64,000 nt of DNA. Source: Methylobacterium nodulans ORS 2060. GTDB lineage: Bacteria; Pseudomonadota; Alphaproteobacteria; Rhizobiales; Beijerinckiaceae. The notes beneath the pieces were generated by a model, which had not been told where the DNA came from, did not search any database, and was given only the letters and a program-made list of their open reading frames with translations. Position numbers and translations under genes: made by a program. The stretch lies in contig NC_011894.1 in NCBI RefSeq assembly GCF_000022085.1, positions 7,239,001-7,303,000 on the forward strand, in the 5' to 3' direction. Every line of letters starts with the position of its first letter. Position 1 is the stretch's first letter. Below are positions 36,946 through 53,602 of the stretch, piece by piece.

Positions 36946-37209
36946 ATGAAATTTCGGGTCGAGGTCGACTGTACTCCGCTGGAAGCGCGTCAGTTCGTCG
37001 GCCTCCCGAACGTCGAACCCATGCAGGCGGCCGTTATGGCTGAGGTCGAGCGGCGGATGCTCGCCGATATGGAGCGGTTCTCGCCTGATACGATCATGCG
37101 CAGCTGGTTCTCGCTGTTTCCCCAGAATGCCGAGCAGATGCAGTCCCTGTTCCTGAAGATGTTCCAGCAGGGATTCGGCGGGGCGTCGCCCCCGGCCAAG
37201 GGCGAGTGA
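36946..37209 (+). CDS. Small DUF6489-like protein
   Basis: An 87-residue protein starting MKFRVEVDCTPLEARQFVGLPNVEPMQ. The DCTPxEAR and GLPxVxP words are typical of the DUF6489 family of alphaproteobacteria. The rest is helical (VMAEVERRMLADMERF and AEQMQSLFLKMFQQGF). Function unknown. GTGAGGGAAGG lies just ahead of the ATG. Confidence 0.65.
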   Translation: MKFRVEVDCTPLEARQFVGLPNVEPMQAAVMAEVERRMLADMERFSPDTIMRSWFSLFPQNAEQMQSLFLKMFQQGFGGASPPAKGE

Positions 37210-37566
37210 GGGCGCGAGATCCGGTTGTCCGCGAGGGCGCCCGTCGGACAGGCGCGCCGGCGGCTGCCGGGTGCGGCTCCGTCGTCCGGGAGTCGCTCCG
37301 GTCCTGATCCTGCATCACGCCAATACAGGGTTGCCGGATCCCGGCCCCGGGCGGCCGCGGCGATGCGGCGTGTCCGAACTTCCAGACCGTCGTGGTTCCA
37401 CATTCCGGAATACCGGAACCGGAATTGCGCCGTGCCGCCGTCAAGCCCTTGCACTTCCTCGCAGGTCCAATAGCGTGAGCCCTGGCATGGCCTGTGCTCG
37501 GCGCAGGCCCAGACCAGCTCCGCCGGCCGCATGGTCCGGCCGCAGGGCAGACGAGGGAGGACTAGA
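37210..37566. other. Region upstream of the pyruvate dehydrogenase genes
   Basis: 357 bases with no supported gene. It should contain the promoter of aceE. A short imperfect inverted repeat (GGAATACCGGAACCGGAATT) lies at 37406-37425. No confident promoter elements were picked. Confidence 0.4.
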
Positions 37567-40236
<2,670 letters not shown>

Positions 40237-40277
40237 GGCCGGCCGGTTTTGCCCGAGGCGCGGGCAGCGCGACGGAA

Positions 40278-40301
40278 CCCCTCTCCCGCACGGGAGAGGG
40301 G
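40278..40301. terminator. Hairpin, CCCCTCTCCC family, between aceE and aceF
   Basis: Ten-base perfect arms CCCCTCTCCC / GGGAGAGGGG with a 4-base loop, 41 bases after aceE and 61 before aceF. It may attenuate read-through inside the operon. Confidence 0.5.
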
Positions 40302-40361
40302 ATCCCGCGCTTCCTGGCGCAACTGCCTATTCCAATGATGTGACGCAACGGGAGAGACGTC

Positions 40362-41684
40362 GTGGCGACCGAGGTCAAGGTTCCGGATATCGGTGATTTC
40401 AAGGATGTCCCGATCATCGAGGTGCATGTGAAGGAGGGCGACAGCATCGGGCCGGACGACCCGCTGATCTCGCTCGAATCCGACAAGGCCACCATGGAGG
40501 TGCCCTCGCCCTCCGCCGGCGTGGTCGAGAAGCTCCTGATCAAGATCGGCGACAAGGTGAGCGAGGGGCACCCGATCCTGCTCCTCAAGGGCGAGGGCGA
40601 GGCCAGGGGCGAGGCCAAAGGCAACGGCGCGGCCGCCGCGGCCGATACCGCGGCCCTGATGTCCCGGCAGGAGCCCCCACCCGCCCCGAGCGCCCCCGCG
40701 CCGCAGGCGCCAGCCCCGCAGGCCCCGGCCCCGGCTCCGGCTCCGGCCCCCTCGGCGATCCCGGACTTCTCGCAGGTCCATGCGAGCCCGGCCGTGCGGC
40801 GGCTGGCCCGCGAGCTCGGCGTCGACCTCACCGCCATCAAGGGCACCGGCGAGAAGGGCCGCGTCACCAAGGAGGACGTGAAGGGCCACCTGACGCGCGC
40901 GGTCGCTCCGGCGGCCGCCGGCGGCGTGGTCTTCCCGGGCGGCGGCATGGGCATCCCGGAGATCCCGGCCGTCGACTTCGAGAAGTTCGGGCCCATCGAG
41001 ACCAGGCCGCTCGCCCGGATCAAGAAGATCTCGGGGCCGCACCTGCACCGGGCGTGGCTCAACGTGCCGCTCGTCACCCATCAGGACGAGGCCGACATCA
41101 CCGAGACCGACGCCTACCGCAAGGACCTCGACACGACCGCCAAGGAGAAGGGCTACCGCGTCACGCTGCTCGCCTTCCTGATCAAGGCCGCGGTCTCGGC
41201 GCTGCGCCAACACCCCGAGTTCAACGCCTCGCTGTCGCCCGACAAGGAATCTCTGATCCTCAAGCGCTACTACAATATCGGCGTTGCGGTCGACACGCCG
41301 GACGGGCTGGTGGTGCCGGTGGTCAAGGATGCCGAGCGCAAGGGCATCACCGAGATCAGCCAGGAGCTCGGCGCGCTCTCGAAGAAGGCCCGCGACGGCA
41401 AGCTGTCGAGCGGCGACATGCAGGGGGCGAGCTTCACGATCTCGTCGCTCGGCGGCATCGGCGGCACCGCCTTCACACCGCTCGTCAACGCGCCCGAGGT
41501 GGCGATCCTGGGCGTCGTGCGCTCCAGGATGGCGCCGGTCTGGGACGGGTCCGAGTTCAAGCCGCGGCTGATGCTGCCGCTCTCGGTCTCCTACGACCAC
41601 CGGGTCATCGACGGGGCGCTCGCCGCCCGCTTCACCCGCCACCTCGCCCACGTCCTGGAGGACGTGCGGCGGCTCGTGATCTGA
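40362..41684 (+). CDS. aceF: Dihydrolipoyl acetyltransferase, PDH E2
   Basis: A 440-residue E2. It has one N-terminal lipoyl domain with the lipoylated Lys at residue 42 (ESDKATMEV), an Ala/Pro linker (residues 85-135), the peripheral-subunit-binding domain (ASPAVRRLARELGVDLTAIKG, about 140-175), and the CoA-acyltransferase domain with SYDHRVIDGA (catalytic H413 and D417). GTG 40362 is preceded by GGGAGAG. It sits between aceE and lpd in one transcription unit. Confidence 0.95.
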   Translation: MATEVKVPDIGDFKDVPIIEVHVKEGDSIGPDDPLISLESDKATMEVPSPSAGVVEKLLIKIGDKVSEGHPILLLKGEGEARGEAKGNGAAAAADTAALMSRQEPPPAPSAPAPQAPAPQAPAPAPAPAPSAIPDFSQVHASPAVRRLARELGVDLTAIKGTGEKGRVTKEDVKGHLTRAVAPAAAGGVVFPGGGMGIPEIPAVDFEKFGPIETRPLARIKKISGPHLHRAWLNVPLVTHQDEADITETDAYRKDLDTTAKEKGYRVTLLAFLIKAAVSALRQHPEFNASLSPDKESLILKRYYNIGVAVDTPDGLVVPVVKDAERKGITEISQELGALSKKARDGKLSSGDMQGASFTISSLGGIGGTAFTPLVNAPEVAILGVVRSRMAPVWDGSEFKPRLMLPLSVSYDHRVIDGALAARFTRHLAHVLEDVRRLVI

Positions 41685-41697
41685 GGAGGCGCAGCGC

Positions 41698-43557
41698 ATG
41701 AGCAGCACCGAGGTCCGCCTGCCCGACATCGGCGACTTCAAGGATGTCCCGATCATCGAGGTGATCGTGAAGCCCGGCGACACGATCGGCGTCGACGACA
41801 CGCTGATCGTGCTCGAATCCGACAAGGCGACGATGGATGTCCCCTCGCCCGTCTCCGGCACGGTGGCGGAGGTGAAGGTCAAGCCCGGCGACAAGGTCTC
41901 GGAGGGCGACCTGATCCTGATGATGACGGAGGCGGCCGGGGCCGGCCAGCCGAAGCCCGGCATCACCGAGAAGGCGGCCCCCGCCGCGCCGGCGGGCGCG
42001 CCAGCGGGCGCGCGGGCCGCCAGCGGCCTTCCGAGCCATGCCCCCGGCGAGGGGCAGGCGGGCTACGGCTCGTCCGCGGTGGGCGGTGGGGACGGCGCGA
42101 CGCCGCCCGCGCCGCAGGCCGCGGCCCCGGTCTCCGGCGAGGAGATGCGGGCCGAGGTGCTAGTGCTCGGCGCCGGCCCCGGCGGCTACACGGCCGCCTT
42201 CCGGGCCGCCGATCTCGGCAAGTCGGTGGTCCTGGTCGAGCGCTGGGCGAGCCTGGGGGGCGTGTGCCTCAATGTCGGCTGCATCCCCTCGAAGGCGCTC
42301 CTCCACGCCGCCAAGGTGATCGACGAGAGCCACGCCATGGCGGCGCACGGCATCAGCTTCTCAAGCCCCGCGATCGATGTCGACAAGCTCCGGGGCTGGA
42401 AGGACGGCGTCGTCAAGCGCCTCACGGGCGGCCTCGGGGGCTTGGCCAAGCAGCGCAAGGTGACGGTGGTGACCGGCACCGGCCGCTTCGTCAGCCCGCA
42501 TCAGGTCGCGGTCGAGCACGAGGGCCGGACCCGCATCATCGGCTTCGAGCAGGCGATCATCGCGGCCGGCTCGGAGCCGATCCAGATGCCGTTCATCCCG
42601 CACGACGACAAGCGGGTGATCGACTCGACCGGGGCGCTCGAACTCGACGGCATCCCCAAGCGCCTGCTCGTCATCGGCGGCGGCATCATCGGGCTCGAGA
42701 TGGCCACGGTCTATCACGCGCTGGGCGCCAAGGTGACCATCGTCGAGCTGATGGACCAGATCATCCCGGGCGCCGACAAGGACATCATCACGCCGCTGAT
42801 GAAGCGGATCAGCAAGCAGTATGAGGCGATCCACCTCAAGACCAAGGTCACCGGCGTCGAGGCCCTGCCCGAGGGCCTGAAGGTGAGCTTCGAGGGGGGA
42901 TCCGCACCCGCCACCGACACTTTCGACAAGGTGCTGGTATCGGTGGGGCGGCGGCCGAACGGCAAGCTGATCGCAGCGGAGGCCGCGGGCGTGATCGTGG
43001 ACGAGCGCGGCTTCATCCCGGTCGACAAGCAGATGCGCACCAACGTGCCGCACATCTTCGCCATCGGCGACGTGGTCGGGCAGCCGATGCTGGCCCACAA
43101 GGCGACGCACGAGGGCAAGGTCGCGGCCGAGACCGCGGCGGGGAAGAACGCGTTCTTCGACGCCAAGGTGATCCCGTCGGTGGCCTACACGGACCCGGAG
43201 GTGGCCTGGGTCGGGCTGACCGAGAACGAGGCCAAGGCCAAGGGGATCAAGGTGGGCAAGGGGGTGTTTCCCTGGGCGGCGAGCGGGCGCTCGCTGTCGC
43301 TGGGGCGCGACGAGGGGCTGACCAAGGTGCTGTTCGACGAGGCGAGCGACCGGATCCTCGGCTGCGGCATCGTCGGGCCGTCCGCCGGCGACCTGATCGC
43401 GGAGGCGGCGCTCGCCATCGAGATGGGGGCGGATGCGAGCGACATCGGGCTCACCATCCACCCGCACCCGACCCTCTCCGAGACGATCGGCATGGCGGCG
43501 GAGGCCTTCGAGGGCACGATCACCGACCTCTACATGCCCAAGCGCCCGGCCCACTGA
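41698..43557 (+). CDS. lpdA: Dihydrolipoyl dehydrogenase with N-terminal lipoyl domain, PDH E3
   Basis: A 619-residue E3 carrying its own lipoyl domain. The lipoyl Lys is residue 43 (ESDKATMDV); residues 10-20 of this domain (DIGDFKDVPII) are identical to the AceF lipoyl domain. After a Pro/Ala/Gly linker comes the FAD domain (GAGPGGYTAAFRAADLGK), the redox disulfide (GVCLNVGCIPSKALL), the NAD domain (GGGIIGLEMATVY) and the dimer domain with HPHPTLSE. It reoxidises dihydrolipoamide. The start is 14 bases after the aceF stop, with AGGAGG ahead. Confidence 0.95.
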   Translation: MSSTEVRLPDIGDFKDVPIIEVIVKPGDTIGVDDTLIVLESDKATMDVPSPVSGTVAEVKVKPGDKVSEGDLILMMTEAAGAGQPKPGITEKAAPAAPAGAPAGARAASGLPSHAPGEGQAGYGSSAVGGGDGATPPAPQAAAPVSGEEMRAEVLVLGAGPGGYTAAFRAADLGKSVVLVERWASLGGVCLNVGCIPSKALLHAAKVIDESHAMAAHGISFSSPAIDVDKLRGWKDGVVKRLTGGLGGLAKQRKVTVVTGTGRFVSPHQVAVEHEGRTRIIGFEQAIIAAGSEPIQMPFIPHDDKRVIDSTGALELDGIPKRLLVIGGGIIGLEMATVYHALGAKVTIVELMDQIIPGADKDIITPLMKRISKQYEAIHLKTKVTGVEALPEGLKVSFEGGSAPATDTFDKVLVSVGRRPNGKLIAAEAAGVIVDERGFIPVDKQMRTNVPHIFAIGDVVGQPMLAHKATHEGKVAAETAAGKNAFFDAKVIPSVAYTDPEVAWVGLTENEAKAKGIKVGKGVFPWAASGRSLSLGRDEGLTKVLFDEASDRILGCGIVGPSAGDLIAEAALAIEMGADASDIGLTIHPHPTLSETIGMAAEAFEGTITDLYMPKRPAH

Positions 43558-43797: not shown

Positions 43798-44235
43798 TCA
43801 GCCCTTTCGGGGCGCGCGGTTCTTGCGCTGCTGGCCGAGGCCGATGCTCTTGGCGAGTTCGGAGCGCTGGGCCGCGTAGTTCGCCGCCACCATCGGGTAG
43901 TCCGGCGGCAGGCCCCATTTCTCGCGGTACTGCTCGGGCGTCAGGCCGCGCGTCGTCAGGTGCCGCTTGAGCGACTTGTAGGGCTTGCCGTCCTCCAGGC
44001 TGATGATGGCGTCCGGCGTCACCGTCTTCTTGACCGGGATCGGCGGCACCGGCTTCTCCGGCGCCGCCGGCGGCGGCGACACGAGCGCCTGCAGGGTGCC
44101 GTGGATGGACGTCAGCAGCCCGGGCAACTCCGACGCCGGCACCGAATTCTTCGAAACATAGGCCGACACGATATCGGCCGTCAGCGTGACGAGCTCCTCG
44201 GCGTCCGCGTCCCGACCATCCACGTCTGTCATCAT
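43798..44235 (-). CDS. MucR/Ros-family transcriptional regulator, degenerate zinc finger
   Basis: A 145-residue MucR-type regulator. The C-terminal half is diagnostic: SLEDGKPYKSLKRHLTTRG, TPEQYREKWGLPPDYPMVA, NYAAQRSELAKSIGLGQ. The usual first zinc ligand Cys (ICLEDGK) is Ser here, and the second His after KRHL is replaced by Arg, so two ligands are lost. The N-terminal helix region (residues 10-55) mediates oligomerisation in the family. A Pro/Val linker separates the halves. Two adjacent ATG codons (44235, 44232) could start it. Confidence 0.85.
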   Translation of the reverse strand: MMTDVDGRDADAEELVTLTADIVSAYVSKNSVPASELPGLLTSIHGTLQALVSPPPAAPEKPVPPIPVKKTVTPDAIISLEDGKPYKSLKRHLTTRGLTPEQYREKWGLPPDYPMVAANYAAQRSELAKSIGLGQQRKNRAPRKG

Positions 44236-44999
44236 CGGATTTCCGTTCCGTAAGGGGTGGTAATGCCGGGCCGCGCCCGCGCATGCATTCACGGTCGGCC
44301 CTCGTGTTCTCGTAAGGCGAGCTCCGGACTGTGCCGAGGCACTACTCCGGAATCCGCAGCAGAGGTGTTGGCGCTTCTTGCTCCTGCCCGCAAGATGGAG
44401 AAAGCAGGAACATCGTTCTCCATACGTAGTTCTTGTGGATGCGCCTCGGGAATGCACAGGTATTACCTACCACCGGTTGCGTTTTGATGCATTGGTTGTG
44501 GCGGTATTTGTATCAAATTCGATCCGATTTTGTGGATGATCAGAGTTTGATAAAGCTCAGTGAAAAGCACTGCCGCCGCTCCCGCCGCCTAGAGAAGCGA
44601 CGAAGGACCGGCGTGGCATGCGTGCCGAGGGAAGTTGGCGCTACCGTGAGGTGCAGTGCACGACATCTCGCGCGTGCTCATGATGCGCGGATCGGGCAGA
44701 ATTGATGATGAAGGCGAATGTGAAATATTGATAGGAGGGAATTCATACGATTTGAATTGTCCTCGGACGTCGCGTGGACGGCAGGGCCTGGATGGGATGT
44801 TCCCGTCCGGCAGGCACCGTCGCGCAGGCCGTCTGAGCTGGGCAGAGCTGATCCGGGCCGGGCGGACGTGAGGGCGCCGCGGCTTGCGTCGCGCCCGCCT
44901 GGAGCCGTGCCCGACCGGTCGGGCCGGATCACGGCTCGAAGCTCCCGATGTCACGCGCTCCCTTGTGCCGAACCGGTGTCCACTTCGACGGGGAGCGCG
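44236..44999. other. Long intergenic region with a low-GC core
   Basis: 764 bases with no gene I can support. Bases 44460-44580 and 44690-44760 are clearly less GC-rich than the flanks. A short open frame (44656-44871; MHDISRVLMMRG, IGGNSYDL) crosses the second patch but lacks codon bias and a ribosome site. The right end holds a hairpin at 44902-44937. Confidence 0.5.
44902..44937 (-). terminator. Terminator of the paaABCDE operon
   Basis: GAGCCGTG (44902-44909) pairs with CACGGCTC (44930-44937) around the 14-base palindrome CCCGACCGGTCGGG (44910-44923). It lies 62 bases beyond paaE. Confidence 0.6.
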
Positions 45000-46076
45000 C
45001 TAAACGTGGTCGAAGTCGATCACCACCCGGTCGGTCGTGGGCTTCGCCTGGCAGGCGAGCGCGAATCCCGCCGCGATCTCCCAGGGTTCGAGGGAGTAGT
45101 TGAGATCCATCGCGACCGCGCCCTCGGCCACCTTGGCCCGGCAGGTGCAGCACATGCCGCCCCGGCACGAATAGGGCAGGTCGAGGCCGGCCCGGATCGC
45201 CGCCTCGAGCACGGTCTCCCCGGGCGCCACAGGGATCGCGGTCGCGACGCCGTTGGCGATGATGGTGGCGCGGGCCGCGGGAGTCTCCGGAGCCGAAGCC
45301 GGTACGGGCGCGCGCGCCGGCCGTTCCGGCCCCTCCGGCGTGAAGCGCTCGACATGGATGCGTGCCGCGTCGAGCCCCGCCTCGCGCAGGGCCGCCACGA
45401 CGCAATCCAGCATGCCGGAGGGGCCGCACACGAAGGCATGGTCGATCGTGGCCGCCGGCACGAGGGTCCGCAGGAGGAGCGCGACCTTGGGACCGTCGAG
45501 GCGCCCGTTGAGGGCTGCGACGTCCTGCGCCTCCCGCGACAGGACGTGGAACACGCCGAGCCGGTCGAGGAAGCGGTCCTTCAGGTCCTCCAGTTCCTCG
45601 CGGAACAGGATCGAGCCCGTGCTGCGGTTGCCGTAGACCAGGAAGAATCGGCTCTCCGGCTCCCGGGCGAGCAGGGTGCGCAGGATCGACAGGATCGGCG
45701 TGATGCCGGAGCCCGCCGCGAAGGCCGCGTAGGTGCGCGCCCGTCCGGGCTCCGGCGCGATGCCGAAGCGGCCCATCGGCGGCATCACGTCGATCGCGTC
45801 GCCGGCCGCGAGCGCCTCGGTGGCGAAGGCCGAGAACAGGCCGCCCTCCACGCGCTTGACCGCGATGCGCAATTCCCCGTCGTCGAGCCCGGAACAGATC
45901 GAGTAGGAGCGCCGCACCTCCTCGCCGCCGAGCGTGGTGCGCAGGGTCAGGTACTGGCCGCAGGAGAAGGCGAAGGTCTCGCGGAGCGCCTCGGGGACCG
46001 CGAAGGCGATGGAGACCGCCTCCGGCGTCTCGCGGCGGATCTCGCTGATGCGCAGGCGGTGGAAGCGGGCGCTCAT
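45000..46076 (-). CDS. paaE: Phenylacetyl-CoA epoxidase reductase subunit PaaE
   Basis: A 358-residue ferredoxin-NADPH reductase that feeds electrons to the PaaABC oxygenase. The FAD-binding barrel has RRSYSICSG, the NADP domain GSGITPILSILRTLL, and the C-terminal plant-type 2Fe-2S domain the cysteine set SCRGGMCCTC plus a later Cys in ALACQ. All ligands are present. The ATG at 46076 is 11 bases from the paaD stop. Last gene of the operon. Confidence 0.92.
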   Translation of the reverse strand: MSARFHRLRISEIRRETPEAVSIAFAVPEALRETFAFSCGQYLTLRTTLGGEEVRRSYSICSGLDDGELRIAVKRVEGGLFSAFATEALAAGDAIDVMPPMGRFGIAPEPGRARTYAAFAAGSGITPILSILRTLLAREPESRFFLVYGNRSTGSILFREELEDLKDRFLDRLGVFHVLSREAQDVAALNGRLDGPKVALLLRTLVPAATIDHAFVCGPSGMLDCVVAALREAGLDAARIHVERFTPEGPERPARAPVPASAPETPAARATIIANGVATAIPVAPGETVLEAAIRAGLDLPYSCRGGMCCTCRAKVAEGAVAMDLNYSLEPWEIAAGFALACQAKPTTDRVVIDFDHV

Positions 46077-46087
46077 CGCGGCCTCGT

Positions 46088-46573
46088 CTAGATGCACTTG
46101 AAGGCGTCGAAGGGCTCGCGGCAGGCGAGGCAGCGCCACAGCGCCTTGCAGGGGGTCGAGCCGAACTCGGACAGGCGCTCGGTGCGTCCGGACCCGCAAT
46201 GCGGGCAGGTGACCGCCTCCTCGCCGAACAGGGCGCGGCGGGAGGCCTTCGCGGCGGGCGGCGCAATGCCGAAGGCCCTGAGCTTGGCCCGGCCCTCCTC
46301 CGTCATCCAGTCGGTGGTCCAGGCGGGCGCGCGCACGAGGCGCAGGCGGACCTGCGGGAAGCCGGCGGCGGCGAGCGCCACCTGCACGTCGAGGCCGATC
46401 GCATCCATGGCCGGGCAGCCCGAATAGGTCGGGGTGAGGGCGACCTCGACGATGCCGTCCCGGACCGTCACCTCGCGCAGCACGCCGAGATCCGCGATGG
46501 TGAGCACCGGGATCTCCGGATCGCGGACGCTCGCCGCCGCCGCATAGGCCCGGGCCGCCGCGTCGCTCACCAC
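46088..46573 (-). CDS. paaD: Phenylacetate pathway protein PaaD
   Basis: A 161-residue protein with an N-terminal MIP18/DUF59 domain (RDPEIPVLTIADLGVLREV, TYSGCPAMDAI) and a C-terminal zinc ribbon (CPHCGSGRTE, WRCLACREPFDAFKCI). PaaD is thought to help mature the iron centre of the epoxidase. Its start overlaps the end of paaC by seven bases, showing translational coupling. Confidence 0.9.
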   Translation of the reverse strand: MVSDAAARAYAAAASVRDPEIPVLTIADLGVLREVTVRDGIVEVALTPTYSGCPAMDAIGLDVQVALAAAGFPQVRLRLVRAPAWTTDWMTEEGRAKLRAFGIAPPAAKASRRALFGEEAVTCPHCGSGRTERLSEFGSTPCKALWRCLACREPFDAFKCI

Positions 46574-47337
46574 ACGGCTCCCGGATGGGCGCGCTGCAGG
46601 TATTGCAGATCGGCCAGGATGAAGCCGAGATGCTCGCTGTGGCGTCCCGCCCGCCCTCCGCTCTGGGCGAAGCGGCCGGAGGGGCGCTCCAGCGTCGCCT
46701 CGCCGAGGAGCGCCTCAAGGGCCGCGTCGAAGGCCGGGCGCAGGGCGGCCGGATCGACTGCGATGCTCTCGGCTGGGAGGCCGGGCGGGTCCGGCTCGAA
46801 CAGCTCCGCCGCATAGGGCCAGAGATCGTCGAGCGCGGCCTGCGCCCGTGCGTGGCTCTCCTGCGTGCCGTCGCCGAGGCGGATCAGCCACTCGCCCGCG
46901 TGGCGCAGGTGATAGGCGGTCTCCTTCTCGGTCTTGGCGGCGATGGCCGCGAGGGTCGGATCGGCCGAGCCCGTCATGGCCCGCCAGTAGGGGTCGGCGA
47001 AGGCCGAGAACAGCACCTGCCGCACGATCGTCGCGGCGAAGTCGCCGTTCGGCTGCTCGACGAGAAGGCAGTTCCGGTACTGGTGCGCCTCGCGCCGGTA
47101 GGCGAGATCGTCCTCGGTGAGCCCCCTTCCGTCGAGCGCGGCGGCGTAGTCGTAGAGCGCCCGGGCCTGGCCCACGCAGTCGAGGGCGAGGTTGGCGAGC
47201 GCGATGTCCTCCTCGAGCATCGGCGCGTGCCCGCACCATTCCGAGAGGCGATGGCCCAGGATCAGCGCGTCGTCGGCTCGCCGCAGCACCAGGGCGAGGA
47301 GCGGCGTCTCGGCAACCGCGATGGAGGTGGTGGGCAT
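46567..47337 (-). CDS. paaC: Phenylacetyl-CoA epoxidase structural subunit PaaC
   Basis: A 256-residue ferritin-fold subunit that pairs with PaaA but has no working diiron site itself. Typical blocks are LVLRRADDALILGHRLSEWCGHAP, ALANLALDCVGQARALYDYAA, DPYWRAMTGS and ETAYHLRHAGEWLIRLGDG. ATG 47337 (MPTTSIAVAE) is chosen; the upstream extension of the frame is repeat-derived. A dispersed element at 47364-47513 separates it from paaB. Confidence 0.9.
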   Translation of the reverse strand: MPTTSIAVAETPLLALVLRRADDALILGHRLSEWCGHAPMLEEDIALANLALDCVGQARALYDYAAALDGRGLTEDDLAYRREAHQYRNCLLVEQPNGDFAATIVRQVLFSAFADPYWRAMTGSADPTLAAIAAKTEKETAYHLRHAGEWLIRLGDGTQESHARAQAALDDLWPYAAELFEPDPPGLPAESIAVDPAALRPAFDAALEALLGEATLERPSGRFAQSGGRAGRHSEHLGFILADLQYLQRAHPGAVW

Positions 47338-47363
47338 GTCCCGATCCCCGGATCCGGCGCTCA

Positions 47364-47513
47364 TACCAACGGTCATTTTCAATGACTGTTGGTTCCGCTC
47401 TCGGATTGTCGCCAAGCCAAAGGCTTGGTGTCGACACTTCGAGATGGGTCGACGGCCCGATGCGTGAGCATGCGCGGCAGCACCTGCTGCCTCGGCAGCC
47501 TGGGCCGTTGGTA
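47364..47513. repeat. Dispersed TIR element, copy 3, inside the paa operon
   Basis: It begins TACCAACGGTCATT and ends GGGCCGTTGGTA, so the outer 10 bases are inverted repeats with one mismatch. The left 27 bases are themselves a hairpin. It accounts for almost the whole paaB-paaC gap and ends two bases from the paaB stop codon. Other operon junctions here are overlaps or gaps of about 10 bases. Confidence 0.8.
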
Positions 47514-47514
47514 A

Positions 47515-47802
47515 TCACATGTGCCCCACCTCGTCCGGCACCTCGTAGAAGGTCGGGTGCCGGTAGATCTTCGAGGCGGTGGGCTCGAACAGCATGGTCT
47601 TGTCTGCGGGGTCCGAGGCCACGATGGCACTGGAGGGCACGACCCAGATCGACAGCCCCTCCCCGCGCCGCGTGTAGACGTCCCGCGCCGCCTGCAGGGC
47701 CATCGCCGCGTCCGCCGCGTGCAGCGAGCCCACATGCTTGTGCGCGAGACCGTTGCGCGAGCGGAGGAACACCTCCCAGAGCGGCATCTTCGCCTCGGCC
47801 AT
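47515..47802 (-). CDS. paaB: Phenylacetyl-CoA epoxidase subunit PaaB
   Basis: A 95-residue PaaB (PLWEVFLRSRNGLAHKHVGSLHAADAAMAL, VYTRRGEGLSIWVVPSSAI), the small subunit that bridges PaaAC pairs. AGGAGGAGCCC directly precedes ATG 47802. The repeat copy at 47364-47513 abuts its stop. Confidence 0.92.
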   Translation of the reverse strand: MAEAKMPLWEVFLRSRNGLAHKHVGSLHAADAAMALQAARDVYTRRGEGLSIWVVPSSAIVASDPADKTMLFEPTASKIYRHPTFYEVPDEVGHM

Positions 47803-47812
47803 GGGCTCCTCC

Positions 47813-48826
47813 TCAGGCGGCCGCAGAGGCCGGGCCGGCCTCTGCGGAAGCGCGGCGCGCGCGCTTCCCGGCATGGGCCAGCGCCGCCTCGCGCACCCAG
47901 GCCCCGGCGGCATGCGCGTCCCGGCGCTGCCTCATCCGCTGGCGGTTGCAGGGGCCGTTCCCGGCCAGCACCTGCCGGAACTCCTCCCAGTCGATCGCCC
48001 CGAAGCGCCAATGGCCGGTTTCGGCATCGTAGGCGAGTTCGGGGTCCGGGAATGCGAGGCCGAGATGATGACCCTGCGGCACCGTCGCGTCCACGAACTT
48101 CTGGCGCAGCTCGTCGTTCGAGAAGCGCTTGATCTTCCAGCGCGCCGATTGCTCGGAATGCTGGCTCTCGGAATCGGGCGGGCCGAACATCATCAGGCAG
48201 GGCCACCACCAGCGGTTCAGGGCGTCCTGCGCCATCGCCTTCTGCTCGGGCGTGCCGCGGCAGAGGGTGAGCATGATCTCGTAGCCCTGGCGCTGGTGGA
48301 AGCTCTCCTCCTTGCAGATGCGGATCATCGCCCGTGCGTAGGGGCCGTAGGAGCAGCGGCAGAGCGGGATCTGGTTCATGATTGCCGCTCCGTCGACGAG
48401 CCAGCCGATCGCCCCGATATCGGCCCAGGTCAGGGTCGGGTAGTTGAAGATCGACGAATACTTGGCCCGGCCGTCGAGGAGCTGGTCGACGAGGTCCTCG
48501 CGGGCGACGCCGAGCGTCTCGGCCGCCGCGTAGAGGTAGAGCCCGTGGCCGGCCTCGTCCTGGACCTTGGCGAGCAGAGCCGCCTTGCGCTTGAGCGAGG
48601 GCGCCCGGGTGATCCAGTTGCCCTCCGGCAGCATCCCGACGATCTCCGAATGGGCGTGCTGCGAGATCTGCCGGACCAGGGTGCGCCGGTAGGCCTCGGG
48701 CATCCAGTCGTTCGGCTCGATGCGCTCCTCGGCCTCGATCCGCGCCTGGAAGCGGGCATGACGCCCCGCCTCCTCCGGGCCAGCCTCCGCCACGGCGTCC
48801 CGGGCGTTCAGCGCCTGCGTGTACAT
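47813..48826 (-). CDS. paaA: Phenylacetyl-CoA epoxidase catalytic subunit PaaA
   Basis: A 337-residue ferritin-like diiron oxygenase that forms the 1,2-epoxide of phenylacetyl-CoA. The iron-ligand motifs [11 protein letters not shown] and [13 protein letters not shown] are intact, as are [19 protein letters not shown] and [13 protein letters not shown]. The C-terminal tail is Ala/Arg-rich and probably disordered. GGGAGGG sits ahead of ATG 48826. First gene of the operon, 62 bases after paaX. Confidence 0.94.
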
Positions 48827-48888: not shown

Positions 48889-49842
48889 TCATGTAACATG
48901 TGAGGCCGCCGCGAAGCGCTCCGCGAAGGCAGGGCCGGGCGGCGGCAGCGGGCCCTCGTCCGTGCGGGCATGGGCGGAGAGCCAGCGTTCCGAGGCCGGA
49001 AGCAGGCTGCGGTAGAGCCGCCCGCACAGGTCGCGGGCGGCCTCGCCCGGCCAGTCCTCCGGCAACAGGCAGGCGGGCAGGCCCGGATCCCGCAGGACCA
49101 CCCGGCGGTATTCGTGGATGAGGAGGAGCCGCAGCACGAGGGCATGGAGGTCGTCCGGCCGCTCGCCCTCGGCGAGGGACGCGGCGGCGGGACCAAAGGC
49201 GGCGACGAAGCGGGCATAGCGCGCCCCGACCGCATCGAGGGGCCAGGCCCGGGCCGCGAGGCGCCGCGCGGTCTCGGGATCCTCCGGCGTCGCCGCGAGC
49301 CGCAGGAAGGCCCCCTCGCCCGCCTGCGCGACCGCACCGATCATCAGGTCGGGGCCGAGCGCACCGTAGCCCGCCGCGGCGAGGTCCGCCCGCAGGCCCG
49401 GCCGGTCCTCGGCCCCGTCGAGAAGGAGGAGGTCGAACCGGCCCGACCACGGCTGAGGGGCGCTGTCGTAGATCCGCCGGGTCGCCTGCGCGAAGGGCTC
49501 GGCGCCTTCCGGCGTGAGGCGGTAGAAGCTGTTGCGGCCGACCTTCCGGCGCGCGAACCATCCGTCGGCCACGAGGCGCGAGAGCGCCGTGCGCACCACC
49601 CCGTCCCCGATCCGCAGGGCGCGGGTGATTGCGAGCAGGGATTCGAGCGACAGCACCCCGCCGCGGGGCACCACCGCGTCGCCGAACACCGTCACCACCA
49701 GCGATCCGGCACGGATCGGCGTCCGGCGGTGGAACTGATCGATCAGCACCTGGACGTAGGCGGCCATCCGGCGGGAATCCTCGGGTCTGTCCACGAGCGG
49801 GAGAGTCCGGTTCTCGATCCGGACATCCGATCGATCAACCAT
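48889..49842 (-). CDS. paaX: PaaX-type repressor of phenylacetate degradation
   Basis: A 317-residue PaaX, a winged-helix GntR-like repressor that is released by phenylacetyl-CoA. The N-terminal DNA-binding region runs through GVVRTALSRLVADGWFARRKVGRNSFYRLTPEG. The rest (PWSGRFDLLLLDGAEDR, RARLAARAWPLDA-type blocks, LLIHEYRRVVLRDPGLPACLLP) matches the effector-binding domain. GGGAGT lies seven bases ahead of ATG 49842 (MVDRSDVRIEN). It sits between the paaA operon and the divergent paaZ remnant. Confidence 0.9.
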   Translation of the reverse strand: MVDRSDVRIENRTLPLVDRPEDSRRMAAYVQVLIDQFHRRTPIRAGSLVVTVFGDAVVPRGGVLSLESLLAITRALRIGDGVVRTALSRLVADGWFARRKVGRNSFYRLTPEGAEPFAQATRRIYDSAPQPWSGRFDLLLLDGAEDRPGLRADLAAAGYGALGPDLMIGAVAQAGEGAFLRLAATPEDPETARRLAARAWPLDAVGARYARFVAAFGPAAASLAEGERPDDLHALVLRLLLIHEYRRVVLRDPGLPACLLPEDWPGEAARDLCGRLYRSLLPASERWLSAHARTDEGPLPPPGPAFAERFAAASHVT

Positions 49843-49884
49843 TTGGGGACTCCCGATCGGGGCGCACCGCCTTGGGCCGGCTGC

Positions 49885-49913
49885 TTGACCAACCGTCCGG
49901 TCGGTCAATAATG
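49885..49913 (+). promoter_or_regulatory. Promoter with palindromic operator upstream of the paaZ remnant
   Basis: TTGACC (49885-49890) and AATAAT (49907-49912) form a -35/-10 pair with a 16-base spacer. The spacer is part of a 24-base imperfect palindrome, 49885-49908 (half-sites TTGACCAACCG and CGGTCGGTCAA; 10 of 12 positions pair). ACCG-CGGT palindromes of this style are typical TetR-family operators, so PaaR-like control is possible besides PaaX. Confidence 0.5.
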
Positions 49914-49942: not shown

Positions 49943-50925
49943 ATGCAGCTGGAGAGCTACGTCCAGGGGCGCTGAACCGCGCCCGGCCAGGATTGCGTGC
50001 TGGTGCGCAGCGCCGTCACGGGCGAGCCGGTCGCCGAGGTGGCGAGCGGCGGGATCGCCATGCAGGCGGTGCTCGATCATGCCCGCCGTGTCGGTGGCCC
50101 GGCCCTGCGCCGCCTCACCTTCCACGAGCGCGCCGCGATGCTGAAGGCGCTCGCCAATCGCGGCGAGGGCGGCCTCGTCGCCTCCCTCTACACGCATGAT
50201 CCGGGCGTCGCCTCCGACCTCGTCTTCGGCCTGTCCGCCTTCCACGGCCGGCTGCTGGTGGTCGACCGGGACTGCGCGTCGGAGCAGACGGGCCACGGCG
50301 CGCCCCTGCCTCACCTCGTCCATGGCGGGCCGGGCCGGGCGGGCGGCGGCGAGGAACTCGGCGGGATGCGCAGCCTGCGCCCCTACCTGCAGCGCACGGC
50401 CCTCCAGGGCTCCCCCGCCCTCCTCTCCCGCCTCACCGGCCAGTGGATCCGGGGGGCGCCGCTCGTCGAGAGCGACACCCATCCGTTCCGGCTCGCCTTT
50501 GAGGATCTGGAGATCGGCCGCAGCTTCCGCTCGCGCGAGCGCATCGTCACGGTCGAGGACATCGAGCATTTCGCGCATTTCACCGGCGACATCTTCTACG
50601 CCCATATGAGCGACGGAGCGGTGCGCGGGCATCCGTTCTTCCCCGGCCGGGTCGCCCACGGCTACCTCTGCTCGCTTTCGCGGCGGGGCTGTTCGTCGAT
50701 CCCGATCCGGGTCCTGTGCTGGCGAATTACGGCCTCGACTCCCTGCGCTTCCTCAAGCCGCTGCAACCCGGCGAGGCGATCCGCGTGCGGCTCACCGCCA
50801 AGGCGAAATCCCCCCGCAATGCGCAGTATGGCGAGGTGCGCTGGGACGTGGAGATCCTGACCGGCGCGGGCGAGACGGCGGCGACCTACGAGCTCCTGAC
50901 CTTGAACGCGCGGCGGTCCGCCTGA
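49943..50925 (+). pseudogene. paaZ: paaZ remnant: nonsense, internal deletion, frameshift
   Basis: PaaZ normally has about 680 residues: an aldehyde dehydrogenase domain and a hotdog hydratase domain that open and oxidise the oxepin-CoA ring. Here the frame starts MQLESYVQGR at 49943 with GGGGAGG ahead, and stops at TGA 49973-49975, where PaaZ has a Trp. It then resumes (RSAVTGEPVAEVAS...MLKALAN). At about 50155-50175 it jumps to GGLVASLYTHDPGVAS, losing roughly 365 codons, including the aldehyde dehydrogenase active site. The hydratase half continues (TGHGAPLPHLVHGGPGRAGG) until VAHGY near 50670, where one base is missing, then resumes AAGLFVDPDPGPVLANYGLDSLRF to 50925. Confidence 0.9.
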
Positions 50926-51048
50926 AGGTCGGATCAAACGGATCAAACAGATGGGGTGATTGGGGTCTTAGCCGAGGGTGGCTGCTCCGTTCGGGATGTT
51001 GGAACGTGGTCCGTGTTGAGCGGCCACAAGCATCGGGAAGGAGCAGCC

Positions 51049-52095
51049 GTGAAGTATTATGCCGGACTGGACGTTTCGCTGGAAGAGACCGCGATCTGCG
51101 TTGTCGACGATACGGGTCGGATCGTGCGGGAGGCGCGGGCGGCGAGTGAGCCTGGCGCGCTGGTGCAGGCGCTGAACCAGATCGGCCTGCCCCTGGAGCG
51201 CATCGGCCTGGAAGCGTGCTCGCTGACGGCCTGGCTGCACGACGGCCTGCGCGAGGCGGGCTTGCCGGCGATCTGCATCGAGACGCGCCAGGCCAATGCC
51301 GCGATGAAGACGATGCCCAACAAGACCGACCGCAACGACGCACGCGCCCTGGCGCAGATCATGCGGACGGGCTGGTTCCGGCAGGTCCATGTCAAGAGCC
51401 GTCAGTGCCGGCTGTGGCGTTCGCTGCTGGTGGCGCGCCGCACGGTGCTCAACGAGATGCGTTCGATCGAGAACGTGGTGCGGGGGATCCTGCGCGAAGC
51501 CGGGCTCAAGCTCGGCACGCCTGGCCGTGCAGCCTTCGCCGGCCGCGTACGCGAACTGGCCGAGGGCGTGCCCCTGATGACGCAGCTCGTCGAACCGCTC
51601 CTGGAGGTGCTGGCCAGCATGCTGACCGCACTCGCCGGCTTGACGAAGCAGGTCATGGATCTCGTCAAGAAAGAGGCGGTCTGCCAGCGGCTGATGAGCG
51701 TGCCGGGCGTCGGCCCCATCACCGCGCTTGCCTTCCGGGCGACGATCGACCGGCCCGACCGGTTCAGGCGCTCGCGCGACGTCGGCGCCCATCTCGGTCT
51801 GACGCCGGCGCGCTACCAGTCCGGCGAGACCGACATCCAGGGCAAGATCAGCCGTTGCGGCGACGAACTCGCGCGCACCGCGCTCTACGAGGCGGCGCAT
51901 ACGCTGCTGGTGCGGAGCCAGAAATGGTCGAGCCTGCGCGCCTGGGGGATGAAGATCGCCAGGCGTCGCGGCATGGCCCGCGCCCGCGTCGCGGTCGCCC
52001 GCAAGCTCGCCGTCATCCTCCATCGCATGTGGAGCGACGGCACCGCGTTCCGCTGGGGTAAGGAGCCCGCAGAGGGTGCCACGCTCGCAGGATGA
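51049..52095 (+). CDS. IS110-family transposase (DEDD recombinase)
   Basis: A 348-residue transposase. The RuvC-like N-terminal domain shows D8 (YAGLDVSLEE), E55 (IGLEAC), and D94/D97 (NKTDRNDARALA). After a helical linker, the Transposase_20 domain has LMSVPGVGPITALAFRATI and the conserved Ser region IQGKISRCGDELART (S268). Both catalytic halves are intact, so it is likely functional. The GTG at 51049 is preceded by GGAAGGAGC; the frame extends upstream to 50956 without similarity. Confidence 0.92.
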   Translation: MKYYAGLDVSLEETAICVVDDTGRIVREARAASEPGALVQALNQIGLPLERIGLEACSLTAWLHDGLREAGLPAICIETRQANAAMKTMPNKTDRNDARALAQIMRTGWFRQVHVKSRQCRLWRSLLVARRTVLNEMRSIENVVRGILREAGLKLGTPGRAAFAGRVRELAEGVPLMTQLVEPLLEVLASMLTALAGLTKQVMDLVKKEAVCQRLMSVPGVGPITALAFRATIDRPDRFRRSRDVGAHLGLTPARYQSGETDIQGKISRCGDELARTALYEAAHTLLVRSQKWSSLRAWGMKIARRRGMARARVAVARKLAVILHRMWSDGTAFRWGKEPAEGATLAG

Positions 52096-52361
52096 CGCCG
52101 TCACCGCGAAACAGGAGGGCAAAACACCACGCATGAACCCGAAAGGGTGAACCGGATCGTTCCCGTGGGGACGATGGGCCTGGCGATCTCGTTGAGAGTC
52201 CAGAACCTGCGGGTGCAAACCCGCAAGGTCGTGAAACAGATTGAGACGCCTCGCCCTCCTGACCCCATCATGCGGCGGCCAAGCGCCGACCGCGAAGAGA
52301 AGCGTGTGACCCACGGGGCGACACAAGCCGGAGAAACCACAACGAGCAGCTTGACCTAAAC
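52096..52361 (+). ncRNA. Candidate bridge RNA region of the IS110/IS1111 element
   Basis: The 266 bases between the transposase stop and the right inverted repeat are non-coding. They hold several stem-loops, for example CATGAACCCGAAAGGGTG near 52131 and TGCGGGTGCAAACCCGCA near 52208. Some IS110-family elements encode a structured bridge RNA, which guides donor and target pairing, in their longer flank; in IS1111-type elements this is the 3' side. The assignment rests on position and stems only. Confidence 0.4.
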
Positions 52362-52381
52362 GACCCCAATCAGAGAGGACT

Positions 52382-53602
52382 CTAAGCCGCGATCCGCAGG
52401 CGGTCCTGCCCGTAGCTCTCGATGAGGGCGGCGGGGATCGAGTCGAGCACGGCGGCGACCGCGGCCTCGCTGGCGATGGTCCGGGCGAGGAGCCGGGCCT
52501 CCTCGCGGGCGGCCTCCGCGTCGAACCGGTTGAGGAGCGCGACGAGGGCGTGGCTCTCGGCGAAGGGCAGACGCTCGCAGGCCGTCACCGCCCGCTCGAT
52601 CATCCGGCGCGAGAGCGCGGGGCCGGATTCCTCGGTGAAGCCGCTCGCCTCCTCGCGCCAGGCGGACATCGCGGCCGCGAAGGCGGGTTCGAGGGGGCCC
52701 GGCAGGCCCGCCCGGCGATAGAGGGCCGCGAAGCCCTGGCCGTGGGACTCGTGCAGGAGGCCAGAGACCCGCTCGACCGGCAGGCCGGAGAGGTCGGCGA
52801 GGGCCGCTTCCGTGAAGGCCATGCGCCGCGACAGCATCGCCCGCAGGATCAGGCCGGCGGTGAGCTGGCCGTTGCGGCGCAGATAGGTCACGAGGCGACG
52901 CAGATCCTCCCGCGCCGCGCCCTCGGCGAGGCCGAGCGTCGTGCGGTCGCGCGCCTCGCGGGCAACGCGCTCGCCCCGCTCAGGCGGCAGCCAGCCGCAG
53001 GCGATCACGAAGTCCGAGAGGGATCGGGCAAGGCTAGCCGCCACGGCCTGGCGCACCTCGAGCGGCAGGTCCGGCCGCGCGAGCAGCGCCTCGCGCAAGG
53101 CTCCGTCGTCGCCGTGGCGCTCCACCATCCGCAGCAGGCTGCCCGGCGTGATCGCGGCGCCCGGATTGGCGGCGAGCCGGCCCAGGGAGGCGGGGCCGGC
53201 GATCTCGGCCAGCGCGCCGCAGACCATGGGCGACAGGCTCGGACGCGCGGCGATGGCGGCGCGGCCCGTCTCCTCGCCGATCGCCGCGCAATCGACGAGG
53301 TCGGCATCCGACAGGACCGGCGAGCGCGCCAGCACGAGGGCGGCGATCTCCGGCACGTCCTGGGCCAGCGCCACCACCACCGGGCGGGGCGCCTCCGGGG
53401 CATTGGCGCAGGCTTCGGCCAGGGCCCGGCGCACCAGCGGCGAGGGATCGTCGAGGAGGGCCGTGATCGCGGTCTTCGCCTCCCAGCGCGCCTCCGGGTC
53501 GAGCCGGGCGTACAGATAGGCCCGCGCCAGCGACGAGGCGGCCTCGGCCCGCCTGCCGGCGGATTCGTGCTGCGTCCAGAGCAGGAACTGGCGGATCATC
53601 AT
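52382..53602 (-). CDS. DUF2336 domain protein
   Basis: A 406-residue, all-helical, Ala/Arg-rich protein. The first half resembles HEAT-like repeats (DDPSPLVRRALAEACANAPEAPRPVVVALAQDVPEIAALVL, about residues 50-95), as in DUF2336 proteins of alphaproteobacteria, often linked to regulatory genes but uncharacterised. The IS right end lies ten bases from its stop codon, so the insertion could have altered the C-terminus. Two adjacent Met codons start it (53602, 53599). Confidence 0.75.
   Translation of the reverse strand: MMIRQFLLWTQHESAGRRAEAASSLARAYLYARLDPEARWEAKTAITALLDDPSPLVRRALAEACANAPEAPRPVVVALAQDVPEIAALVLARSPVLSDADLVDCAAIGEETGRAAIAARPSLSPMVCGALAEIAGPASLGRLAANPGAAITPGSLLRMVERHGDDGALREALLARPDLPLEVRQAVAASLARSLSDFVIACGWLPPERGERVAREARDRTTLGLAEGAAREDLRRLVTYLRRNGQLTAGLILRAMLSRRMAFTEAALADLSGLPVERVSGLLHESHGQGFAALYRRAGLPGPLEPAFAAAMSAWREEASGFTEESGPALSRRMIERAVTACERLPFAESHALVALLNRFDAEAAREEARLLARTIASEAAVAAVLDSIPAALIESYGQDRLRIAA

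What the first reader, a model, noticed from the sequence alone, without database searches (positions are those of the whole stretch)
49943..50925. paaZ pseudogene with three independent lesions beside an intact paa epoxidase operon
paaZ contains an in-frame TGA at the eleventh codon (a Trp position), an in-frame loss of about 365 codons of the aldehyde dehydrogenase domain, and a one-base deletion near 50670. Yet paaX and paaABCDE remain intact, with a good promoter and operator in front of the remnant. Without ring opening, the epoxide or oxepin-CoA product should build up and be toxic, so either another enzyme replaces PaaZ or the epoxidase now serves another purpose, such as making a tropone-type product.
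Basis: partly seen in the sequence, partly recalled or inferred. Interest (0 to 1): 0.75.

Follow-up and report, generated by a model that had tools for sequence, protein, structure and literature searches.

The report
Dead paaZ, backed by second cluster
In this bacterium one of two gene sets for breaking down phenylacetate has lost its ring-opening gene paaZ, while the second set, elsewhere in the same genome, keeps a full-length paaZ that likely does the job for both; six of the seventeen relatives that have the pathway show the mirror-image loss.

Summary
The pseudogene is real: TGA at codon 11, an in-frame loss of 349 codons, and a one-base loss near 50668. Two findings go further. (1) Of 111 genus genomes 18 have PaaA, and the same 18 have PaaZ (one frameshifted). 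Six relatives are the mirror image: paaX-ABCDE of module I is gone, its paaZ and operator are kept, and the epoxidase is module II's; two of the six keep fossils of both lost halves. Only this genome has two epoxidases (1 of 18 in the genus; 1 of 95 in an order sample). (2) An IS630-like insertion splits a promoter-like element before epoxidase II that is whole in 7 of 7 relatives, so epoxidase I with PaaZ II may be the working route (predicted). Against that, epoxidase I evolves under weaker constraint (dN/dS 0.33) than epoxidase II (0.125). A tropone-type PaaZ is unlikely: the hydratase half is broken too.

The parts
45000..48826 (-). paaE (about 45000-46070), paaD (46088-46573), paaC (46567-47283), paaB (47515-47784), paaA (47813-48826): phenylacetyl-CoA epoxidase, module I
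   Evidence: NCBIfam TIGR02160/02159/02158/02157/02156, all over cut-off; PaaA residues 22-325 align with 5-308 of E. coli PaaA 3pvr
48889..49908 (-). paaX, repressor gene of module I (start codon uncertain)
   Evidence: TIGR02277 256.7 bits, just under its cut-off of 264.55
49885..49913 (+). promoter-like element TTGACC-N17-ATAATG; palindrome ACCAACCGTCCGGTCGGT at 49888-49905
   Evidence: TTGACC-N17-NTAAT in 16 of 16 relatives with class I paaZ and on the M. aquaticum plasmid; palindrome pattern once in the own genome and once in each of 16 of 19 other genomes searched
49943..50146 (+). paaZ remnant, 5' piece; TGA at 49973-49975
   Evidence: TIGR02278 positions 1-70, 55.4 bits
50147..50156 (+). 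junction of the in-frame 349-codon deletion (ALDH domain); CTCGCC at the join, found at both ends in relatives G024 and G104
50147..50668 (+). paaZ remnant, middle piece, into the hydratase domain
   Evidence: TIGR02278 positions 409-582, 253.7 bits
50669..50925 (+). paaZ remnant, 3' piece in the next frame after a one-base loss
   Evidence: 91% identity over 85 residues; TIGR02278 582-664, 104.5 bits
50946..52383 (+). IS110-family insertion sequence (transposase 50956-52095) directly after the remnant
   Evidence: Pfam PF01548, PF02371; five other near-full copies at 100% identity in the genome

Best explanation
The window's paaZ is a dead copy in one of two phenylacetate modules of the same genome, and the other module, about 3.8 Mb away on the same contig, carries a full-length paaZ that would supply ring opening in trans. 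Shown: lesions, second module, presence and absence of parts in 18 genus genomes, fossils, split promoter-like element. Inferred: module I is the older resident, because it lies beside the same lpd-side flank as in relatives, and module II came in by transfer; its PaaA is up to 93% identical to PaaA on Paracoccus plasmids. With two modules present, either copy of each half could be lost. This genome lost paaZ-I. Six relatives lost paaX-ABCDE-I and, where fossils remain, paaZ-II. Predicted: PaaZ and the epoxidase of different modules work together, since those relatives have only such a mixed pair.
For: Second PaaZ 1060.5 bits, 1-664/664, open frame of 690 aa. Glu, Cys, Asp and His at the places of the catalytic residues of E. 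coli PaaZ are kept in the alignment with 6jql (residue numbers and roles from passages of PMC7497051; numbering shifted by 7 by my count). Second PaaX-ABCDE, thiolase, FadJ-like protein, PaaN, PaaG, PaaK. PaaA in 18 of 111 genus genomes, PaaZ over the cut-off in the same 18. 10 relatives have paaX, paaABCDE and paaZ of module I together; 6 have class I paaZ without class I epoxidase, plus class II paaX-ABCDE; 1 has module II with paaZ. Beside the orphan paaZ the left flank matches a module I genome in 5 of 6 and the right flank in 4 of 6; paaE-I fossils in 2 of 6 and paaZ-II fossils in the same 2. Window 36946-43542 is syntenic with the same flank in G002, and shorter parts of it with G005, G104 and G105.
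Against: No expression or growth data. One relative (G005) has class II epoxidase and a paaZ-I with a one-base frameshift, and no other PaaZ match of that size was listed for it; either a sequence error or a real exception. In the order sample 56 of 95 PaaA genomes lack a full PaaZ, so 'an epoxidase needs PaaZ' does not hold outside the genus. The nearest relatives by rpoB among those compared (G049, G050) have no paaA, so vertical descent of module I is not proven.
Confidence: 0.9

Rival explanations
1. The epoxidase of module I has been turned to another purpose, such as a tropone-type product, with its own ring opening given up.
For: Epoxidase I is intact and its promoter-like element and operator are kept. 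Tropone routes are known to use a PaaZ with a dead ALDH half or a stand-alone ECH (passages of PMC7497051 and PMC10454607).
Against: The remnant's hydratase half is also broken: it loses its last 85 residues by frameshift. A full PaaZ is present in trans. No genome-wide search for tropone genes was made, so this is not excluded.
Confidence: 0.04
2. Module I as a whole is decaying: paaZ-I died first and the epoxidase is open only because too little time has passed. This is compatible with the main reading but not with the hybrid route.
For: dN/dS on the own branch is raised in ABCDE-I: 0.334 (0.28-0.41) against 0.178 (0.15-0.21) among relatives. ABCDE-II shows no rise: 0.125 (0.10-0.15) against 0.158. 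The excess resembles that of the dead paaZ pieces, 0.300 (0.20-0.40) against 0.187.
Against: No stop or frameshift in five genes, 1181 codons. In simulation, with 19% of the branch neutral, no stop at all has probability 0.005 to 0.155 depending on the base composition assumed, so this does not decide. The promoter-like element of epoxidase II is split here.
Confidence: 0.4
3. The lesions are sequencing or assembly errors.
For: The TGA and the one-base loss are of the size of sequencing errors.
Against: An in-frame 349-codon deletion is not such an error; dN/dS of the pieces is raised (intervals of own branch and relatives overlap slightly); the genome is 8 contigs, 100% complete.
Confidence: 0.03
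4. A short hydratase protein is made from the remnant by a later start (GTG 49997, 287 aa) and works as a stand-alone oxepin-CoA hydrolase.
For: The ORF keeps the FTGDxxxxH stretch and the HGY after it and just passes Pfam MaoC at 27.5 bits against 27.
Against: The match ends at profile position 58 of 123; the rest of the domain is out of frame.
Confidence: 0.03

Closest known systems
Phenylacetate (paa) hybrid pathway clusters, E. coli type (PaaZ fusion)
   Same: paaZ divergent from paaX-ABCDE in module I; module II carries PaaZ, PaaG, PaaK and a PaaJ-type thiolase
   Different: Two modules in one genome; paaZ dead in one, promoter-like element split in the other
paa pathway remodelling and paralogous redundancy across genomes (PMC13186573; abstract, passages and section 28 read)
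   Same: Gains, losses and paralogous paa parts, some on separate replicons
   Different: The one mention of Methylobacterium lists the genus only; mirror-image loss between two modules with fossils is not in the passages read
PaaZ2 of tropodithietic acid producers (PMC7497051, passages)
   Same: Second, altered PaaZ beside an intact PaaZ1
   Different: PaaZ2 is said to keep its hydratase role; here both halves are broken
Pathways with split ring opening (separate ALDH and ECH; PMC7497051, passages)
   Same: Module II also carries a PaaN-type ALDH (TIGR02288, 738 bits)
   Different: This genome has the PaaZ fusion as well

Membership tests
PaaZ (TIGR02278) | score over the family cut-off of 562.8 bits, full length (window copy) | tested here: not met
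   Remnant: 253.7, 104.5 and 55.4 bits in three pieces
PaaZ (TIGR02278) | same, for the second copy at C7:3471624-3473681 | tested here: met
   1060.5 bits, 1-664/664
PaaZ (TIGR02278) | catalytic Glu, Cys of ALDH and Asp, His of hydratase, second copy | tested here: met
   Aligned with E. coli PaaZ 6jql; residue roles from PMC7497051
PaaABCDE epoxidase, module I | each subunit over its NCBIfam cut-off, open frame | tested here: met
   545/280, 134/85, 293/133, 201/108, 441/421 bits for A, B, C, D, E
PaaX repressor | over the TIGR02277 cut-off of 264.55 | tested here: inconclusive
   256.7 (module I) and 231.4 (module II), both below
Tropone-type PaaZ2 | intact hydratase domain with dead ALDH | tested here: not met
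   Hydratase frameshifted, last 85 residues out of frame
Reciprocal loss between redundant modules | complementary halves lost in different genomes, with fossils | tested here: met
   6 relatives against the own genome; fossils of both halves in 2 of 6
Reciprocal loss between redundant modules | mixed pair works in vivo | not testable with these tools
   Needs growth and enzyme tests

The most novel reading that the evidence does not exclude
This bacterium runs phenylacetate breakdown on a cross-module hybrid: epoxidase of module I with PaaZ of module II. paaZ-I is dead and an IS630-like insertion cuts the promoter of epoxidase II, while six relatives run the opposite hybrid, epoxidase II with PaaZ I. 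Methylobacterium thus rebuilds one working pathway, in both possible pairings, from two half-lost modules.
Probability: 0.35. Interest if true: 0.6.

Novelty: new variant of a known kind. Interest (0 to 1): 0.45.

Why it matters
It turns an alarming single-locus picture (epoxidase without ring opening) into an ordinary one, and shows why a missing gene must be judged genome-wide. The set of relatives also offers a natural experiment on which parts of the phenylacetate pathway can be exchanged between lineages: epoxidase and PaaZ seem exchangeable. Within this genus no epoxidase was found without a PaaZ gene (18 of 18, one of them frameshifted), which fits a toxic intermediate, although in the wider order such genomes are common (56 of 95).

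Tried and rejected
Loss of ring opening: rejected by the second PaaZ. Tropone use: see rivals. Neutral-decay simulation for epoxidase I: indecisive. rpoB as dN/dS yardstick: wrong reading frames were taken, values dropped; rpoB was re-read for identity and a tree only. Longest-ORF queries picked wrong frames for several loci and gave many spurious matches; only the L010 rows and alignment and the window-plasmid comparison are used from it. First selection script stopped on an N codon after printing A-E (redone). Rows dropped from rates: G106 from paaX-I (by choice, because the frame my script took was short), G104 from paaC-E of class II (not on the contig). Incomplete rows kept in the state counts: G010 (paaE runs off the contig, paaX matches in two pieces) and G104 (class II contig ends after paaB). 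Whether G004 lost module I could not be seen because its matching contig gives only 617 bases beyond the flank match. A search for class II PaaA in plasmid records showed no Methylobacterium among the 15 rows listed of 158, so the M. aquaticum plasmid is left out of the state counts. The pattern for the promoter-like element of paaX-II was written after looking at the sequences, so 7 of 7 is a description, not an independent test. Paper searches; the titles and starts of abstracts listed show no such reciprocal loss. Opened: PMC13186573 (abstract, passages, section 28), PMC7497051 (passages), PMC10454607 (passages).

Full report
What is there. The window is G000:C7:7239001-7303000 of an 8,839,022-base genome in 8 contigs. 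From recall of contig sizes, not from any call, I take it for Methylobacterium nodulans ORS 2060. paaX and paaABCDE are open, and A-E pass their family cut-offs.

The second module. A search of the own genome with the PaaZ family finds a full-length copy at C7:3471654-3473669, 1060.5 bits, no stop. Around it lie, on one strand, paaE, D, C, B, A and X, an IS630-family transposase, paaZ, a FadJ-like hydratase-dehydrogenase, a 3-oxoadipyl-CoA thiolase and PaaN, and on the other strand PaaG and PaaK. The two sets are only 39-65% identical per protein over the matched stretches, so this is not a recent duplication. The ALDH and hydratase residues of E. coli PaaZ are kept in the second copy (roles from passages of PMC7497051).

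The genus. PaaA is found in 18 of 111 genomes and PaaZ over its cut-off in the same 18; the PaaZ of G005 counts by its longer piece. PaaA falls into two classes that a tree separates cleanly; in it the own class I copy groups with G010 and G031 (support 86 and 88) and has the longest end branch. Ten relatives hold paaX, paaABCDE and paaZ of module I (in G010 paaE runs off the contig and paaX matches in two pieces). Six (G001, G002, G005, G024, G071, G104) hold class I paaZ with its operator but no class I epoxidase beside it, and class II paaX-ABCDE elsewhere (in G104 the contig ends after paaB). One (G004) holds module II with its paaZ. Only the own genome has both epoxidases. Beside the orphan paaZ the left flank matches that of a module I genome in five of six and the right flank in four of six, so paaX-ABCDE-I was removed in place there; for G071 only the paaZ block matched. 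G002 and G104 keep pieces of paaE-I beside the orphan paaZ and pieces of paaZ-II beside the class II epoxidase: both halves of the swap are visible in one genome. The scars differ in extent, and the six fall into three separate groups on an rpoB tree, but a single old event followed by erosion was not tested against several events.

How general. In a sample of 397 genomes of the order, 95 have PaaA and the own genome alone has two matches. 39 of the 95 also have a full PaaZ, 56 do not; such genomes are expected to use separate ALDH and hydratase (passage of PMC7497051), which I did not check. So an epoxidase without PaaZ is common in the order but was not seen in this genus, except that the only paaZ of G005 carries a one-base frameshift.

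Promoters. paaZ-I of the 16 relatives that have it, and of an M. aquaticum plasmid, is preceded by TTGACC-N17-NTAAT with a palindrome in the spacer. The palindrome pattern occurs once in the own genome and once in each of those 16 genomes, and in none of the three others searched. It is kept in front of the dead gene, where it may also serve paaX. In front of paaX-II, 7 of 7 relatives with module II epoxidase have TTGTRC-N17-TAAGNC; in the own genome the starts of the two halves lie 1132 bases apart instead of 23, with the IS630-like element between them. I wrote that pattern after seeing the sequences. The element has no other full copy in the genome and its transposase frame appears interrupted, so the insertion need not be recent. 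That these elements are promoters is inferred from conservation and spacing.

Selection. By Nei-Gojobori counts with a three-point average, dN/dS on the own branch is 0.334 (95% by codon bootstrap 0.28-0.41) for ABCDE-I against 0.178 among relatives, 0.125 (0.10-0.15) for ABCDE-II against 0.158, and 0.300 (0.20-0.40) for the paaZ pieces against 0.187. Epoxidase I is thus under weaker constraint than epoxidase II over the whole branch. This speaks against the hybrid route or for a late switch. The absence of stops in 1181 codons is not decisive.

Verdict. Ordinary at its core: a redundant paaZ died. The surrounding pattern, reciprocal loss between two modules in both directions, is the part worth keeping.

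Noticed in passing
G005:C1:798069-800077 (L066): The only PaaZ of this relative over the cut-off is frameshifted by one base at about codon 160, with a class II epoxidase elsewhere; sequence error or the real epoxidase-without-PaaZ case.
   Followed up: partly
G000:C7:3470413-3471545 (L038:15413-16545): IS630-like element inside a conserved promoter-like element of paaX-II; transposase frame appears interrupted, no other full copy.
   Followed up: partly
window 50946-52383: IS110-family element directly after the paaZ remnant; five other near-full copies at 100% identity. The right flank of module I in relatives (DapA-like gene, transporter-like genes; names from recall of sequence) found no DNA match in the window.
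   Followed up: partly
window 43798-44457: ROS/MUCR-family regulator next to the end of paaE.
   Followed up: no
L038:13164-14168: PaaA of module II is up to 93% identical to PaaA on Paracoccus plasmids, a hint of transfer.
   Followed up: partly
G000:C7:5095317-5095929, 4111662-4112273; C5:372795-374117: Further aldehyde dehydrogenase matches look split or carry an in-frame TAG.
   Followed up: no
G232, G246, G355, G401: Four genomes of the order sample have full PaaZ without PaaA; two of them are under 90% complete.
   Followed up: no
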